Positions 16-27,059 of a DNA stretch of 64,000 bases are shown here, piece by piece. Location: the NCBI RefSeq assembly GCF_900143675.1, contig NZ_FRFC01000004.1, forward strand, positions 62,001 to 126,000. The letters are read 5' to 3'. How positions within the stretch are numbered: position 1 is the first letter of the stretch; each line of letters opens with the position of its first letter. Position numbers and translations under genes: made by a program. This DNA is from Candidatus Nitrosotalea sinensis (GTDB lineage: Archaea; Thermoproteota; Nitrososphaeria; Nitrososphaerales; Nitrosopumilaceae). The notes under the pieces were generated by a model. It had not been told where the DNA came from and ran no database searches. It saw nothing but the letters and a program-made list of their open reading frames with translations.

Positions 16-741
16 GTGCATGATACTTGGCATCACGATATGATTTCACGAATTGAAGAAAATGATCTAGGTTTTACTAGCCTCTGGAGCAATGCTAAAA
101 AAATGGAATGTGGCACATTGTTCCTAAATACATTGTTTACAGATGATCTTTTTTTTAACAAATTATCTGATGTTTCATGTATTAGCGAGCAAATGATTGA
201 TGAATCCATAAAATATTTTCAGAAAGAACATTTGCTCCCCTGTGTATATTCTGTAAATTATAAAGAACTTGAAAATCTGCTTGAAAGAAAAGGATTTGTG
301 CATCATGATACGTTGCACGTATTAAAAAGAAATACTGGAGAAAATAGGAAAATAAGTGCAATCAAAATAAACACTGATACTGTTTCACTGTGGACTGATA
401 TTTTTTGCAGGGCATATGATTGTCTAGAATGGGGACCAGATGTGACAAAAGCTGTTGAAAATTCGTTACAGTGTGCAGATTACTTTATAGATGAATCAAA
501 GAGCTCATGCGTGGCTCTATATGAGAAAAATGATATTCTTGGCCTGTATTGTCTTGGAACCGTCACTGATCGAAGAAATAGCGGGCTTGCCTCACTGCTT
601 GTTGACTTTGCATCAAATGAGGTCAAATCAAGGTCTTTAGAATGCCTTATCCTGGAAACATATGGCAGGGATAATCTTTTGAAATTTTATTCAAAGCTTG
701 GATTTGAACAGGTCTATGAAAAAAAAGTCTATACTATTTGA
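16..741 (+). CDS. GNAT family N-acetyltransferase
   Basis: A 241-residue protein whose last 80 residues look like a GNAT acetyl-CoA-binding fold: a strand with GLYCLGTV, then DRRNSGLASLLVDFA (a variant of the R/Q-x-x-G-x-G/A loop), and a C-terminal LKFYSKLGFEQ typical of the family. The N-terminal 110 residues have no motif I recognise. The chosen start is GTG just after an in-frame stop; an ATG at 40 is also possible. The acceptor substrate cannot be deduced. The 3' end overlaps the convergent deoxyhypusine synthase gene by 8 nt. Confidence 0.75.
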   Translation: MHDTWHHDMISRIEENDLGFTSLWSNAKKMECGTLFLNTLFTDDLFFNKLSDVSCISEQMIDESIKYFQKEHLLPCVYSVNYKELENLLERKGFVHHDTLHVLKRNTGENRKISAIKINTDTVSLWTDIFCRAYDCLEWGPDVTKAVENSLQCADYFIDESKSSCVALYEKNDILGLYCLGTVTDRRNSGLASLLVDFASNEVKSRSLECLILETYGRDNLLKFYSKLGFEQVYEKKVYTI

Positions 742-1672
742 GCTTGGAAACTAGTGCAGAATAAAGGAAAGGTAGAATGGTTGTTGCTTCAGCATGGATT
801 GTAGTCTGCTTGGCATTTTTTGTCACTTTGCCCCATGATATTGCTTCTCTGACAAGTGCTCCACTAAGACTTCCGTCAAATTCTTGAGCTGTTGTAATGT
901 ATACTGCATAATCTAGACCTTCTCGATATTGGTTCCACCATAAAGTGTGGTGTTTTGATATTCCGCCGCCTATCATGAGTGCTCCTGATTTTTTTGCCTT
1001 GAATATCAATCCTGACAACAAGTCGCCATCTGCAACAATGTTGAGCTTAAAATCTGCATGATTTTGTGAAAACATCCAGATTTGACTTCCTACTGCACCG
1101 TCCATTATGCCAGGTACTATTACAGGTATGTTGTTTTTGCTTGCCCAGTACAAGAACGAGTCTTCTCCCAAGTTCTCACCTATCATTTTTGTTATCTCAT
1201 GAGTTGACATGTCTTTCTTGCCTTCCTTGTATGCTTTTTGCAAAAAGCCCTGCATCTTTTCTTCTATGAGTGGACCGTAGCTTTTCAGAGGGACTAGAAC
1301 ATTTCCTAATCTGTGAATTTCTTTTTCGACAAGCTCACTATCATCCATTGTAAATGATCCTTCTAGATAATTGGAATAATGTCGAGCAATATCATGATCT
1401 AGCGCACCGCATGTTGTTATTATGACATCACACATTTTGTTTTTCACCATGTCTGTAATTATGCCTCTCAGGCCGGTTGACACCACTGCCCCCACAAATG
1501 ACATGAATTTCAAACAATTCTTGTCTTCGATCATGGAAGTTAGTATGTTGAGGCCGTCTACCAGATTCTTGGATTCAAATCCACCTGATTTTGACATTTG
1601 TTCAAATATTGACTCTATGGAATCTCCTTTCTTGATGGATATGTCTTTAACTGGTTTACCAGGCTTTATCAT
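734..1672 (-). CDS. dys: Deoxyhypusine synthase
   Basis: Catalyses transfer of the aminobutyl group of spermidine to a lysine of aIF5A, the first step of hypusine formation (family knowledge). The 312-residue length fits the family. Visible hallmarks are the NAD-binding TTCGALDHD near residue 87, GGGISKHH at 235-242 with the paired histidines, DYAVYITTAQEFDGSLSGA, and SWGKV with the lysine expected to carry the enzyme intermediate at residue 282. A TATA-like box near 1697-1708 on this strand lies at the right distance for a nearly leaderless mRNA. A paralogue lacking the paired histidines lies at 25380-26444. The gene is divergent from inositol-phosphate synthase. Confidence 0.93.
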   Translation of the reverse strand: MIKPGKPVKDISIKKGDSIESIFEQMSKSGGFESKNLVDGLNILTSMIEDKNCLKFMSFVGAVVSTGLRGIITDMVKNKMCDVIITTCGALDHDIARHYSNYLEGSFTMDDSELVEKEIHRLGNVLVPLKSYGPLIEEKMQGFLQKAYKEGKKDMSTHEITKMIGENLGEDSFLYWASKNNIPVIVPGIMDGAVGSQIWMFSQNHADFKLNIVADGDLLSGLIFKAKKSGALMIGGGISKHHTLWWNQYREGLDYAVYITTAQEFDGSLSGALVREAISWGKVTKNAKQTTIHAEATTILPFLYSALVSKLK

Positions 1673-21163: not shown

Positions 21164-21715
21164 GTGCTAGACCTAGTAGCAAAAAAAATTTTTCTGACAA
21201 AAGGAAAGGGAGTACACCCAGATAGACTAACAAGTTTCGAGTATGCATTACGTGATGCAGGAATTGCAGGAACTAACTTGGTGCTAATATCAAGTATATT
21301 TCCACCCGGATGCAAGCTCATCTCCAAGGCCGAAGGATTGAAGCTAATCAGGCCTGGCAGTGTTACATTTGCAATTTATTCACGACAGGAAAGCAATGAA
21401 CCACATAGATTGATGGCAGCATCAGTGGGAATTGCTGAACCAAAAGACAAGACAAAGTATGGCTATCTCTCTGAGTATGTCTCATTTGGTGAGACTGAAA
21501 AAGAGGCAGGTGACTATGCAGAAGACATTGCCGCACAAATGCTTGCTTCATCACTTGGAATTTCCTTTGATGTAAACAAGAGCTGGGACGAGAAAAGACA
21601 GCAATGGAAAATCTCTGGAGAGATATACAAGACTAGAAACATAACACAGAGTGCAGTTGGAGATGCTAAAGGAAACTGGACTACAGTGTTTACCGCCGCA
21701 GTCTTGATTCTGTAA
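21164..21715 (+). CDS. pdaD: Pyruvoyl-dependent arginine decarboxylase
   Basis: Converts arginine to agmatine, the entry to archaeal polyamine synthesis. The 183-residue proenzyme has the self-cleavage site in VLISSIFPPGC, with cleavage expected between Ser43 and Ser44 to make the pyruvoyl group. GKGVHPDRLTSFEYALRDAGI and EYVSFGETEKEAGDYAEDIAAQML are further family blocks. The GTG start coincides with the transcription start predicted from a TATTTTTAAAG box at about 21132-21142. It links with two deoxyhypusine synthase family genes in the window. Confidence 0.94.
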   Translation: MLDLVAKKIFLTKGKGVHPDRLTSFEYALRDAGIAGTNLVLISSIFPPGCKLISKAEGLKLIRPGSVTFAIYSRQESNEPHRLMAASVGIAEPKDKTKYGYLSEYVSFGETEKEAGDYAEDIAAQMLASSLGISFDVNKSWDEKRQQWKISGEIYKTRNITQSAVGDAKGNWTTVFTAAVLIL

Positions 21716-23185: not shown

Positions 23186-23250
23186 GACATCGGTTCAAAC
23201 CGTAGGGGAACATGCCTGGCAGTTGGGGGCGCTTGACTGCCAGGCGCTTT
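23186..23250 (+). ncRNA. Candidate small structured RNA
   Basis: A GC-rich island in an AT-rich gap. A TTTAAATTA box at 23156-23164 predicts a start near 23186. The following about 65 nt contain a small hairpin, CGGTT-CA-AACCG (23191-23202), and a perfect 10-bp stem, GCCTGGCAGT with ACTGCCAGGC (23214-23223 and 23236-23245) around a 12-nt loop, ending at a T-rich stretch. CGCTTGAC occurs twice (23181-23188 and 23230-23237). Its 3' end touches the stop codon of the convergent pepF gene, so a terminator role for either strand is an alternative. Confidence 0.4.
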
Positions 23251-25021
23251 AATTAATCAAATCTTCTAGCCTATCTGCCTGATTTTTGATGTACTCAAAT
23301 CCTTCTTGCCAGAAACTTTCTGATGTTATGTCAATGCCGTGCTCTTTTAGCAACACTTCTGGTTTCTTGGAGCCGCCTGCTGCCAGTATGTCAACATAGG
23401 TTGATGCAAAACTCTTTCCTTCCTTTCTGTATCTTTGGTACAACGACAGGGATAATAGGTTGCCAAAAGAGTACGAGTAGCAGTAAAACGGTGAGTGGTA
23501 AAAGTGAGGAATGCATGTCCACTCTATTCCAAAGTCTGGTGTCACATCAACTGACTTGCCAAACTGGTCCTTGAGTGTCTTCATGTACTCTGAAGTAATG
23601 TCCTGCACCATTGCTCCCTGACCTATTCTGTCATGGGCTGCAATCTCAAAGAGTGTAAAATAGGCCTGTCTTCCAACTGTTGCATAAAGATCATCAATGT
23701 GTTCTACCAGTATGGTTTGCTGTTCTTCGTTTGATATTTCTTCAAGTATCTTGTTGAATAATAGCATCTCTGAAAACGTTGATGCCGTCTCTGCAAGTGG
23801 AAGTGGAGCTTCTGCTATGAATATTGATTTTCCTGATGCTGCAACACTATGTATTGCATGACCCAATTCATGAGCCAAAGTAAAAACATCATTTGTCCTG
23901 CCCTTGAAATTCATAAGGACGTATGGTGTTAGTTTAGGAGATATGGTACTACAAAATGCACCGCTTCTTTTTCCTGGTCTGATTGTAGAATCTACATGTC
24001 TTTGCACAAAAACACGCCTTGCATATTCGCTTAATTGTGGACTGAAGTCATTAAGAGTGTCAAGTACTAATTTTACTGCCTTGTCATAGCTGTATCGTTT
24101 CTCCTCTTTTTTCTTGATTGGTGCGTAAATGTCATAACGTCGTAATTTTTTCATGTTGAGCAACTTGGCTTTTTGCACAAAGAACTTGGAAAAGACATCA
24201 GAGTTTTTCTTGCATACTGCTAGTAGGGATTCAACTGTCTTGTCATCAGTATCGTTTCCAATGTTTCTAACAGATATTGGAGAACTATATCCTCGTATCT
24301 GGATGCATTCGTCTTTCCAGTTTGATACAATGTTTTGATAAATCTCTCCCAAAACTCCCTTGTTTTTGTCAAATTCTCCAAGCAATGCCTTGTATGCAAT
24401 CTCTCTTGTCTTGGGATTGGGGCTTCGTACCAGGACAGTAAGCTCCTCTCTGTTGTATTTTTTTATCTTGCCATCAAGTTTTACCTCAAAAACAAATGCG
24501 TTTGTTATCTTGTCGTATATCTTGACTAGGGCAGAGTGGCCTGTGACATCTAGCGTATTGATTATGCGCTCTTCTGGCTCTGTGAGAGAATATTTGGCAA
24601 GTAACCTCTTGTATCGTAAAAATTCGTATAACTCTCCTGATGATTTCATTAATCTCTGGGCATTTTTTTCATCAATCTGTTTTTTCCACCATTGGTCAAA
24701 AAACAATGTCTGGTTCTCAAGCTGAGCGCCAAGCTTTCTCATCTTTGACAGGAGGGCGGTTGCCTTGTCAGATTGGGTGTCTGAAGAATATTCTAGTGAT
24801 GCATAGCCTGAGACTCGGCCAAACTCTTCTGTTATGTCCTCTAGCTGGTGCAACATTGAGAGAAACTTTTTTTCTGATATTTTTGGCGATAGTATCTTTT
24901 TGTTTTTTTCAAAATTTTTAACAGTATTTTGTATTGCTTGCAATCTTTTTGCAAACTGGGGCGAGTCTGGGTCCTTGACAAGTTCACTTAGATCCCATTT
25001 TTCTTCCTTGAAAACTTGCAT
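23249..25021 (-). CDS. pepF: Oligoendopeptidase F (M3B metallopeptidase)
   Basis: A 590-residue cytoplasmic zinc peptidase that degrades short peptides. The zinc site is TLAHELGHAIHS near residue 385, with the downstream acid in AETASTFSEMLLFNKIL. The helical N-terminal domain and the C-terminal block FYHSPFYCYSYSFGNLLSLSLY fit the family. It has no signal peptide. It is flanked by intergenic regions on both sides and is not obviously part of an operon. Confidence 0.93.
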   Translation of the reverse strand: MQVFKEEKWDLSELVKDPDSPQFAKRLQAIQNTVKNFEKNKKILSPKISEKKFLSMLHQLEDITEEFGRVSGYASLEYSSDTQSDKATALLSKMRKLGAQLENQTLFFDQWWKKQIDEKNAQRLMKSSGELYEFLRYKRLLAKYSLTEPEERIINTLDVTGHSALVKIYDKITNAFVFEVKLDGKIKKYNREELTVLVRSPNPKTREIAYKALLGEFDKNKGVLGEIYQNIVSNWKDECIQIRGYSSPISVRNIGNDTDDKTVESLLAVCKKNSDVFSKFFVQKAKLLNMKKLRRYDIYAPIKKKEEKRYSYDKAVKLVLDTLNDFSPQLSEYARRVFVQRHVDSTIRPGKRSGAFCSTISPKLTPYVLMNFKGRTNDVFTLAHELGHAIHSVAASGKSIFIAEAPLPLAETASTFSEMLLFNKILEEISNEEQQTILVEHIDDLYATVGRQAYFTLFEIAAHDRIGQGAMVQDITSEYMKTLKDQFGKSVDVTPDFGIEWTCIPHFYHSPFYCYSYSFGNLLSLSLYQRYRKEGKSFASTYVDILAAGGSKKPEVLLKEHGIDITSESFWQEGFEYIKNQADRLEDLIN

Positions 25022-25295: not shown

Positions 25296-25379
25296 CTCTA
25301 CATTCTGTGTCATGCTTTTTTGAATTTTGATTTCATCACGCGGCAAGTGTTTATTTAGCCCAGAAATTAGTTGTCGTTC

Positions 25380-26444
25380 GTGGACCATCACAATTTCAAG
25401 GGTAAAGACATTCCCCACCTGAACATCAAGCCCAACATGGGAATAGATGACCTGGTGGATATTTTTGCAAGTACTGGGTATAATGCAAGACAACTCGGAG
25501 ATGCTGCCAAACTATTTTGCAAGATGATTGAGGATGACGCGACCATTTGTCTTACAGTAGCAGGTGCGATGACGCCTGTTGGCTTTGGAGGCCTTTTCAA
25601 GTCATTGATTGAAAGGGGTTTTGTTGACTGGATAATTGCCACCGGTGCAAATGTGTACCATGAGGACCACTTTGCATGGAATCTTCCTGTAAAGCAGGGA
25701 CACTTTGAGGTAGATGACATGATACTATACGACAAGGATATTGTTAGAATCCGTGATGTCTACATCAAGGGAGAAGAAACGCTCAAGGCAGAAGACAAGA
25801 TTGTTCAAAAAATGTTTGAAAAAAACCTGCTTGACAAGCCATTTACCACTGCAGAGTTTTGCAACGCGATGGGAAAATACTCGAAGCAGCATTCCAAGAA
25901 TCCAGAGCGAAGCTTTGTAGTAACTGCATATGATTATGATGTACCTGTTTACATTTCAACACTAAAGGATTCATCACTTGCACTAGATTTGGCACCATTA
26001 CGTCTTGCAAACAAGGTACACAGCCTTGACTTTGTAAGAGAGATAGTAGAGCAAGCTGCAATTTTGTACAATTCAAAAAAATCCGGAATTGTGGAACTTG
26101 GCGGTGGTGTTCCAAAAAACACTGCCCAGCAGACAGGTCCATTGCTTGACCAGATACTCGGACTGGGCCATGGTGGACAGAACTATATCATCCAGATAAC
26201 TGATGCACGACCTGACACTGGAGGACTATCTGGTGCAACACTGCAGGAAGGAAAGAGTTGGGGTAAAGTAAAAGATGCACACGAGGATGTTATCATGGTA
26301 TATACTGATGCAACAATTGCATTTCCGGTTCTATGCCTTTATGCATTAAGCAATGAAAAGCCAAGAAAGCCAAAGAGGCTGTACAAGAAGCTGCCTCAAT
26401 ACTATGAGGATCTATCTAAGGCATACTTTAACAAAAGAAAATAG
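25380..26444 (+). CDS. Deoxyhypusine synthase-like protein (paralogue)
   Basis: About 354 residues, clearly homologous to deoxyhypusine synthase. Counting from a TTG at 25371, it has GGGVPKN at 244-250 where the true enzyme has GGG..KHH, IIQITDARPDTGGLSGAT, and SWGKV with the catalytic-type lysine at 299. Loss of the paired histidines with retention of the lysine suggests another aminobutyl-transfer reaction, for example on a free polyamine rather than aIF5A. The GTG at 25380 coincides with the transcription start predicted from TTTATTTA at 25350-25357. Confidence 0.85.
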   Translation: MDHHNFKGKDIPHLNIKPNMGIDDLVDIFASTGYNARQLGDAAKLFCKMIEDDATICLTVAGAMTPVGFGGLFKSLIERGFVDWIIATGANVYHEDHFAWNLPVKQGHFEVDDMILYDKDIVRIRDVYIKGEETLKAEDKIVQKMFEKNLLDKPFTTAEFCNAMGKYSKQHSKNPERSFVVTAYDYDVPVYISTLKDSSLALDLAPLRLANKVHSLDFVREIVEQAAILYNSKKSGIVELGGGVPKNTAQQTGPLLDQILGLGHGGQNYIIQITDARPDTGGLSGATLQEGKSWGKVKDAHEDVIMVYTDATIAFPVLCLYALSNEKPRKPKRLYKKLPQYYEDLSKAYFNKRK

Positions 26445-26474: not shown

Positions 26475-26687
26475 TTAGAATCTGTCGAATCTGGCTCTCT
26501 CAGTATCTCTGTCGTCCTTTGTTGCCTTTTTCCATTCCTTGTAGTGTTCTTTGCAGAGTACTGTCTTTTTTGAGCCGCGTGGAACATCGAGTCCTGTTCC
26601 TTCTACCTTTGAGGCATTAAGGGAACGGACTCCTTCATTGTCACAGCCTGAGACGTTGCATTTTGCACCTTTTGATATTAGGCCCAT
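26475..26687 (-). CDS. Small Cys/His protein, 70 residues
   Basis: Starts ATG at 26687. It has AKCNVSGCDNEGVRSLNA, KKTVLCKEHYKEWKK and a charged tail, giving a C-x4-C ... C-x2-H zinc pattern shared with other small proteins in the window. The same frame stays open far upstream (to 27059), but the upstream part encodes an unrelated membrane-like segment and is better explained by a separate frameshifted gene. The function is unknown; zinc-dependent nucleic-acid or protein binding is plausible. Confidence 0.65.
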   Translation of the reverse strand: MGLISKGAKCNVSGCDNEGVRSLNASKVEGTGLDVPRGSKKTVLCKEHYKEWKKATKDDRDTERARFDRF

Positions 26688-26749
26688 GAGAGTTCTAAAA
26701 CGTACTATTATATCAGATTTAGGGGTCTGCACCAGTCTCTTGGGTGGTG

Positions 26750-27059
26750 TTAATCGGTTTTGTTTTTTGGATTTTTTCTTACCAAGAAAAAGCCAATGAG
26801 AAACAGTGTTGCACTCAATGAAAAAGACGTAAGGTTGAGTATCAGATATCCAATTCCAAGAGGTATCGGAATGTACGCTGTGGGGGATACAGAATCCATG
26901 TATGTATGTATCACAAGCTGGAAATCGTTTTGGGATCTGGTCTGAAATAGAAGCTGACTGTCTAGTTATCACTCCTATTGCATATGGAGACAAGAGTAAT
27001 ACTAGTCCCAAAATTGACTTTCTGTCAAACTTGGGGATCTTTTTGAGTATTGATGCCAT
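26750..27059 (-). pseudogene. Small membrane protein gene with apparent frameshift
   Basis: The first 30 codons encode MASILKKIPKFDRK followed by a hydrophobic segment ILGLVLLLSPYAIGVI. In that frame the following residues are polar and look non-natural. One base further on (skipping about position 26966), the frame reads LDSQLLFQTRSQNDFQLVIH, then YIPIPLGIGYLILNLTSF and ATLFLIGFFLVRKNP, a convincing second and third membrane segment ending at TAA (26752-26750). A single inserted base, a sequencing error or programmed shifting could explain this. Confidence 0.5.

What the first reader, a model, noticed from the sequence alone, without database searches (positions are those of the whole stretch)
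25380..26444. A deoxyhypusine synthase paralogue lacking the paired histidines, near polyamine genes
The window has a standard deoxyhypusine synthase (734-1672, GGGISKHH, SWGK) and a second with GGGVPKN but the same SWGK lysine. Arginine decarboxylase is 4 kb away. Related divergent enzymes in bacteria act on free polyamines. The paralogue may make homospermidine or another polyamine instead of modifying aIF5A.
Basis: partly seen in the sequence, partly recalled or inferred. Interest (0 to 1): 0.6.

Follow-up and report, generated by a model that had tools for sequence, protein, structure and literature searches.

The report
Archaeal homospermidine-type deoxyhypusine synthase paralogue
An ammonia-oxidizing archaeon (a Nitrosotalea relative) carries, beside its normal deoxyhypusine synthase, a related enzyme that very probably makes a free polyamine (best guess homospermidine) rather than modifying the translation factor; nearly all sampled relatives in its family carry it, and none of them has the standard gene needed to make spermidine.

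Summary
Window 25380-26444 (+) encodes an intact 354-aa deoxyhypusine-synthase-family protein with GGGVPKN in place of GGGxxKHH and the SWGK lysine kept. A normal DHS lies at 734-1672 (-); a pyruvoyl arginine decarboxylase (ADC) starts 4.2 kb upstream. The genome is a Candidatus Nitrosotalea relative. The paralogue is not a DHS by any test available here: all DHS models score it below cut-off, it passes NCBI's 'homospermidine biosynthesis protein' model (477 > 450 bits), and a careful tree splits the KN class from true DHS at 100/100. Its clade holds ammonia-oxidizing archaea plus cyanobacteria. It is near-universal in the window's family (87 of 90 sampled genomes; two others carry the CdmS/SpeY type instead). 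None of the 90 has AdoMet decarboxylase. In 22 of 57 genomes with both genes on one contig, it lies within 3 kb of DHS, sometimes in a DHS-ADC-paralogue cassette. Best reading: a SpeY-like homospermidine synthase. A bolder reading, not excluded: its product is the aminobutyl donor for DHS. NCBI already names the family, so this is a new member of a known kind; the pathway inference and the natural gene swap are the interesting parts. No enzyme activity was shown.

The parts
25380..26444 (+). SpeY-like DHS paralogue (PRK00770/NF001980 type, KN class), 354 aa, GTG start
25349..25356 (+). TATA-like box about 27 bases before the GTG; suggests a leaderless transcript
   Evidence: sequence read; inference
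26100..26123 (+). codons for GGGVPKNT (residues 244-251 counted from TTG 25371), where DHS has GGGxxKHH
26256..26267 (+). codons for SWGK (residues 296-299 counted from TTG 25371); Lys299 = catalytic Lys329 of human DHS
734..1672 (-). canonical deoxyhypusine synthase (PRK01221 type), GGGISKHH, SWGK
21164..21715 (+). pyruvoyl-dependent arginine decarboxylase (agmatine supply)

Best explanation
The gene encodes a SpeY-like, NAD-dependent aminobutyl transferase that works on free amines. By the DHS mechanism, one amine is oxidised on NAD, its C4 unit is held as an imine on Lys299, and it is passed to a second free amine, most likely putrescine + putrescine giving homospermidine. Arginine decarboxylase (21164-21715) and agmatinase elsewhere in the genome supply the putrescine. 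Shown: family, predicted fold, retained catalytic lysine, phylogenetic separation from DHS, gene neighbourhoods, and failure to find a spermidine route. Inferred: substrate, product and any link to aIF5A.
For: NF001980 'homospermidine biosynthesis protein' 476.7 bits over the cut-off of 450, while every DHS model and the caldomycin-synthase model fall below theirs. Careful tree: true DHS and the KN class split at 100/100, the paralogue lies in an archaeal + cyanobacterial clade (100/100), and grouping it with archaeal DHS is rejected, p-AU 1.5e-13. Anabaena makes homospermidine through SpeA-SpeB-SpeY (PMC10385936); 35 of 194 Cyanobacteriota genomes pass NF001980, and several share TDARPDTGGLSGA with the archaeal proteins. 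In all KN-class proteins aligned, His288 of human DHS is Asn or Asp and a loop about 10 residues longer follows; SpeY/CdmS-type proteins share this. The genome has no hit for AdoMetDC or spermidine synthase, only sub-cut-off hits for the CASDH/HSS family, but has ADC and two agmatinase-family genes. Neighbourhood: 22 of 57 testable genomes have DHS and the paralogue within 3 kb, against about 0.4% expected per genome; DHS-ADC-paralogue cassettes in G084, G096 and G078. In G105 the gene is missing between conserved neighbours; G105 and G086 both carry a PRK02492 (CdmS/SpeY) type gene elsewhere (591 bits > 500 for the G105 copy).
Against: No activity and no polyamine profile of this organism. 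The Anabaena PCC 7120 SpeY sequence itself was not fetched, so its place in this clade is likely, not shown. The archaeal protein is only about 36-42% identical to the cyanobacterial and deeper archaeal ones, enough room for another substrate. Nitrosocosmicus agrestis cultures were reported to contain spermidine (PMC8573960), though that paper found no spermidine synthase gene and did not list homospermidine among the amines quantified.
Confidence: 0.68

Rival explanations
1. [quoted passage not shown] Same end product, different substrate.
For: Thermus CdmS is a KN-class DHS homologue using agmatine only (PMC10981699). Two agmatinase-family genes are present. Two same-genus genomes carry a CdmS/SpeY-type gene instead. 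D142, E293 and K299 match CdmS contacts.
Against: Scores 203.6 bits on the CdmS model, cut-off 500; separate clade at 100/100. Two residues modelled to hold the guanidino groups differ (S67 to A66, E136 to G134); these contacts come from a docking model, so this is weak.
Confidence: 0.15
2. A second DHS that modifies aIF5A, or a regulatory partner of the canonical DHS (as in trypanosome DHS heterotetramers).
For: DHS fold (TM 0.72-0.79 to solved DHS), catalytic lysine kept, often next to DHS.
Against: Both histidines gone, longer loop after them, no DHS model reached; bacterial KN-class enzymes act on free amines. A trypanosome-type partner is a degenerate subunit (own knowledge), whereas this one keeps the catalytic residues. 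Two relatives carry a protein only about 30% identical in its stead.
Confidence: 0.07
3. A free-amine aminobutyl transferase with another acceptor or donor (for example cadaverine, or scavenged spermidine + putrescine).
For: DHS-family enzymes differ in amine specificity (CdmS, SpeY, plant HSS). Cadaverine was reported in a Nitrosocosmicus culture. The position of human Asp243 is Leu/Met, not Phe as in CdmS.
Against: ADC and agmatinase point to a C4 diamine. Lysine decarboxylase and amine uptake genes were not looked for here.
Confidence: 0.1

Closest known systems
NCBIfam NF001980 / PRK00770 'homospermidine biosynthesis protein' (cyanobacterial SpeY-like)
   Same: Passes the equivalog cut-off; same clade at 100/100; KN motif; TDARPDTGGLSGA shared with several cyanobacterial members; ADC + agmatinase pathway as in Anabaena.
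   Different: About 36-40% identity; archaeal subclade; lives beside a true DHS; GGGVPKNT rather than GGGSPKNF.
Caldomycin synthase CdmS / proteobacterial SpeY (NF002699 / PRK02492)
   Same: KN class, catalytic lysine, hydrophobic residue in place of human Asp243.
   Different: Separate clade; 203.6 bits against a cut-off of 500; guanidino-contact residues S67 and E136 not kept.
Archaeal deoxyhypusine synthase (PRK01221; Sulfolobus 8put)
   Same: Fold, catalytic Lys, Trp, Glu, Asp238, GGG loop.
   Different: KHH replaced by KNT; Tyr305 to Gln, Tyr176 to Thr; longer loop; below all DHS cut-offs; tree split 100/100.
PRK00805 KN/KD-class paralogues of methanogens and basal Nitrososphaeria
   Same: KN or KD motif; a second paralogue beside a true DHS in several archaea.
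   Different: Separate clade; called 'deoxyhypusine synthase' by NCBI; function not found tested.

Membership tests
Deoxyhypusine synthase (true DHS) | GGGxxKHH with His288 | tested here: not met
   KNT in its place
Deoxyhypusine synthase (true DHS) | Reaches a curated DHS model cut-off | tested here: not met
   five models named DHS, all below cut-off
Deoxyhypusine synthase (true DHS) | Groups with characterised DHS in a tree | tested here: not met
   100/100 split; p-AU 1.5e-13 against
Deoxyhypusine synthase (true DHS) | Catalytic Lys329 in SWGK, DHS fold | tested here: met
   K299; model pLDDT 92.7, TM up to 0.79 to solved DHS
Deoxyhypusine synthase (true DHS) | Transfers aminobutyl to the aIF5A lysine | not testable with these tools
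   needs enzyme assay
SpeY-like homospermidine synthase (PRK00770/NF001980) | Score over the equivalog cut-off of 450 | tested here: met
   476.7 bits
SpeY-like homospermidine synthase (PRK00770/NF001980) | Same clade as cyanobacterial members | tested here: met
   100/100
SpeY-like homospermidine synthase (PRK00770/NF001980) | Putrescine supply genes present | tested here: met
   PvlArgDC and agmatinase-family genes
SpeY-like homospermidine synthase (PRK00770/NF001980) | Clade contains the characterised Anabaena PCC 7120 SpeY | tested here: inconclusive
   a Nostoc genome has both types; the PCC 7120 sequence was not fetched
SpeY-like homospermidine synthase (PRK00770/NF001980) | Makes homospermidine from putrescine | not testable with these tools
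   needs enzyme assay or polyamine profile
Caldomycin synthase (PRK02492/NF002699) | Score over the equivalog cut-off of 500 | tested here: not met
   203.6 bits
Caldomycin synthase (PRK02492/NF002699) | Modelled guanidino contacts S67, E136, D143, E293 | tested here: not met
   A66 and G134 differ; D142 and E293 kept

The most novel reading that the evidence does not exclude
In ammonia-oxidizing archaea that lack a spermidine route, two DHS-family paralogues work in series: the KN-class paralogue makes homospermidine from putrescine, and the canonical DHS uses homospermidine instead of spermidine as aminobutyl donor for aIF5A. This would make the paralogue needed for translation and would explain why the two genes are often neighbours or in one cassette with ADC.
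Probability: 0.4. Interest if true: 0.65.

Novelty: new member of a known kind. Interest (0 to 1): 0.42.

Why it matters
How archaea without spermidine make the deoxyhypusine of aIF5A is an open question (PMC5178350). No paper in the held library links ammonia-oxidizing archaea or Thaumarchaeota to homospermidine, and the AOA polyamine study that listed these genes named DHS and found no spermidine synthase gene. If right, a widespread group of archaea uses homospermidine, and the two-paralogue relay can be tested with two purified proteins and aIF5A.

Tried and rejected
Recent duplication of the AOA DHS: rejected (p-AU 1.5e-13). DHS-fusion idea from long open frames (670-722 aa) in some relatives: in G068, G082 and G107 the DHS ORF from its start codon is a normal 312 aa; G145 (535 aa) was not resolved. 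Human Asp316 to Leu as a specificity mark: dropped, true archaeal DHS also have Leu. Simple SpeY-versus-AdoMetDC exclusion: not absolute; three f2 and three f6 genomes have both. AdoMetDC occurs in 20 of 150 genomes of the class, none in the window's family; the pattern follows phylogeny, so it is supportive only. Spermine_synth hits in family members are mostly weak matches inside long (500-900 aa) frames; four genus-g2 genomes have a roughly 340-aa match without AdoMetDC, not followed. Searches failed on input errors and were redone in other form.

Full report
Observation. The window carries two deoxyhypusine-synthase-family genes, 734-1672 (-) and 25380-26444 (+), and a Pfam search of the whole 1.6-Mb genome finds only these two. 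The second has GGGVPKNT where the first has GGGISKHH, and both have SWGK. The closest relatives (94-95% identical) are Candidatus Nitrosotalea proteins, so the window is from a Nitrosotalea-like ammonia-oxidizing archaeon. The start at GTG 25380 fits the start of relatives and a TATA-like box about 27 bases upstream.

What it is. NCBIfam places the first gene as DHS (PRK01221, 446 > 350 bits) and the second as 'homospermidine biosynthesis protein' (NF001980/PRK00770, 477 > 450); no DHS model reaches its cut-off for the second. A careful tree of 71 proteins (IQ-TREE, LG+C20 PMSF) separates true DHS, including human, Pyrococcus and Sulfolobus, from all KN-class proteins at 100/100. Inside the KN class are three main groups and a small Archaeoglobales group: PRK02492 (Thermus caldomycin-synthase type, Pelagibacter, Sphingomonas, Nostoc plasmid type), a group around PRK00805 (methanogens, basal Nitrososphaeria, various bacteria) and PRK00770, the window's group. 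PRK00770 holds ammonia-oxidizing archaea, one deeper Nitrososphaeria family and cyanobacteria; the cyanobacterial branch sits with the deeper archaeal family (100/97), so the gene has probably crossed between domains. Family models on single proteins agree. An origin as a duplicate of archaeal DHS is rejected (p-AU 1.5e-13).

Active site. Against human DHS the paralogue keeps Lys329 (K299), Glu323 (E293), Trp327 (W297), Asp238 (D200), Lys287 (K249), the GGG loop and Ser317. It changes His288 to N250, His289 to T251, Tyr305 to Q275, Tyr176 to T137 and Asp243 to L205. His288 to Asn or Asp and Tyr305 to Gln run through the KN-class proteins aligned; the following loop is about 10 residues longer than in DHS. 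CdmS, a biochemically characterised KN-class enzyme, acts on a free amine and has a hydrophobic residue at the 243 position. Two of the CdmS residues modelled to hold guanidino groups (S67, E136) are A66 and G134 here, which leans weakly to putrescine over agmatine. AlphaFold gives a confident DHS fold (pLDDT 92.7; the 50 best matches are all DHS). No structure of a KN-class member was found in the PDB by sequence.

Pathway context. The genome has a pyruvoyl arginine decarboxylase (window 21164-21715) and two agmatinase-family genes, no AdoMet decarboxylase, no Pfam spermidine synthase and only sub-cut-off matches to the family of carboxyspermidine dehydrogenase and the non-DHS homospermidine synthase. 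Over 150 genomes of the class, an NF001980 match at E <= 1e-60 is in 118. By my count of rows there are 90 genomes of the window's family: 87 have the NF001980 type at 440 bits or more, two have the CdmS type, one (G146) has two DS genes not typed; none has AdoMetDC. Basal families with a single DS gene mostly have AdoMetDC and spermidine synthase. This pattern follows phylogeny and is supportive, not proof.

Gene neighbourhood. Where both genes are on one contig, DHS and the paralogue lie within 3 kb in 22 of 57 genomes, against about 0.4% expected in a 1.6-Mb genome. The genomes are related, so these are not 22 independent events, but the arrangement differs: divergent in Nitrososphaeraceae, tandem or with ADC between them in others. 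Three genomes have DHS-ADC-paralogue in a row, and in two more ADC abuts the paralogue. In the window's genus the 4-7 kb spacing to ADC is conserved synteny, not an operon.

A natural swap. In G105, same genus, the neighbours on both sides are present (homologues of 23249-25021 and 26475-27059) but the paralogue is missing from between them. A caldomycin-synthase/SpeY-type gene (591 > 500 bits) lies on another contig, overlapping an ornithine cyclodeaminase-family gene. G086 has the same flanking genes and its own copy of the same type. Two proteins about 30% identical thus seem to stand in for one another, which argues for a shared end product.

Mechanism. By homology to DHS the enzyme would oxidise an amine on NAD, hold the C4 unit as an imine on Lys299 and pass it to a second amine. 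Putrescine + putrescine to homospermidine is the most likely reaction (as described for Anabaena SpeY, PMC10385936); agmatine coupling followed by a ureohydrolase is the main rival. Human DHS can use homospermidine as donor (stated in PMC9992855). It follows, as inference only, that the canonical DHS here may take its aminobutyl group from homospermidine.

Limits. No activity was measured, aIF5A was not searched for in this genome, the Anabaena PCC 7120 sequence was not placed in the tree, and spermidine reported in a Nitrosocosmicus culture (PMC8573960) is not explained. All genome handles (G numbers) are anonymous; names come only from the contigs and the plasmid records. Three reference DHS rows in the tree are the partial sequences printed.

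Noticed in passing
L073:4674-6775 (G105), L074:5094-6152 (G086), L193, L192: Two same-genus genomes carry a CdmS/SpeY-type (PRK02492) gene overlapping an ornithine cyclodeaminase-family gene; the PRK00770 paralogue is missing from its conserved place.
   Followed up: partly
L075:3678-8117 (G078): Second DHS-ADC-paralogue cassette beside a thermosome gene in a genome that also has the ancestral set; its paralogue ORF is short (296 aa).
   Followed up: partly
L199-L226 (Cyanobacteriota), L079, L190: Cyanobacterial PRK00770 proteins group with one deep Nitrososphaeria family (100/97): transfer between domains, direction unknown.
   Followed up: partly
L071, L072, L078, L080, L081, L083: PRK00805 KN/KD-class paralogues, named 'deoxyhypusine synthase' by NCBI, lack the paired histidines; family f6 has DHS, PRK00770 and PRK00805 together.
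   Followed up: no
L016:1486-3093 (G145): DHS ORF of 535 aa from its first start codon, longer than the usual 310-340; possible N-terminal extension or misread start.
   Followed up: no
G082, G140, G090, G025: Roughly 340-aa spermidine-synthase-family gene without any AdoMet decarboxylase in one genus of the family.
   Followed up: no
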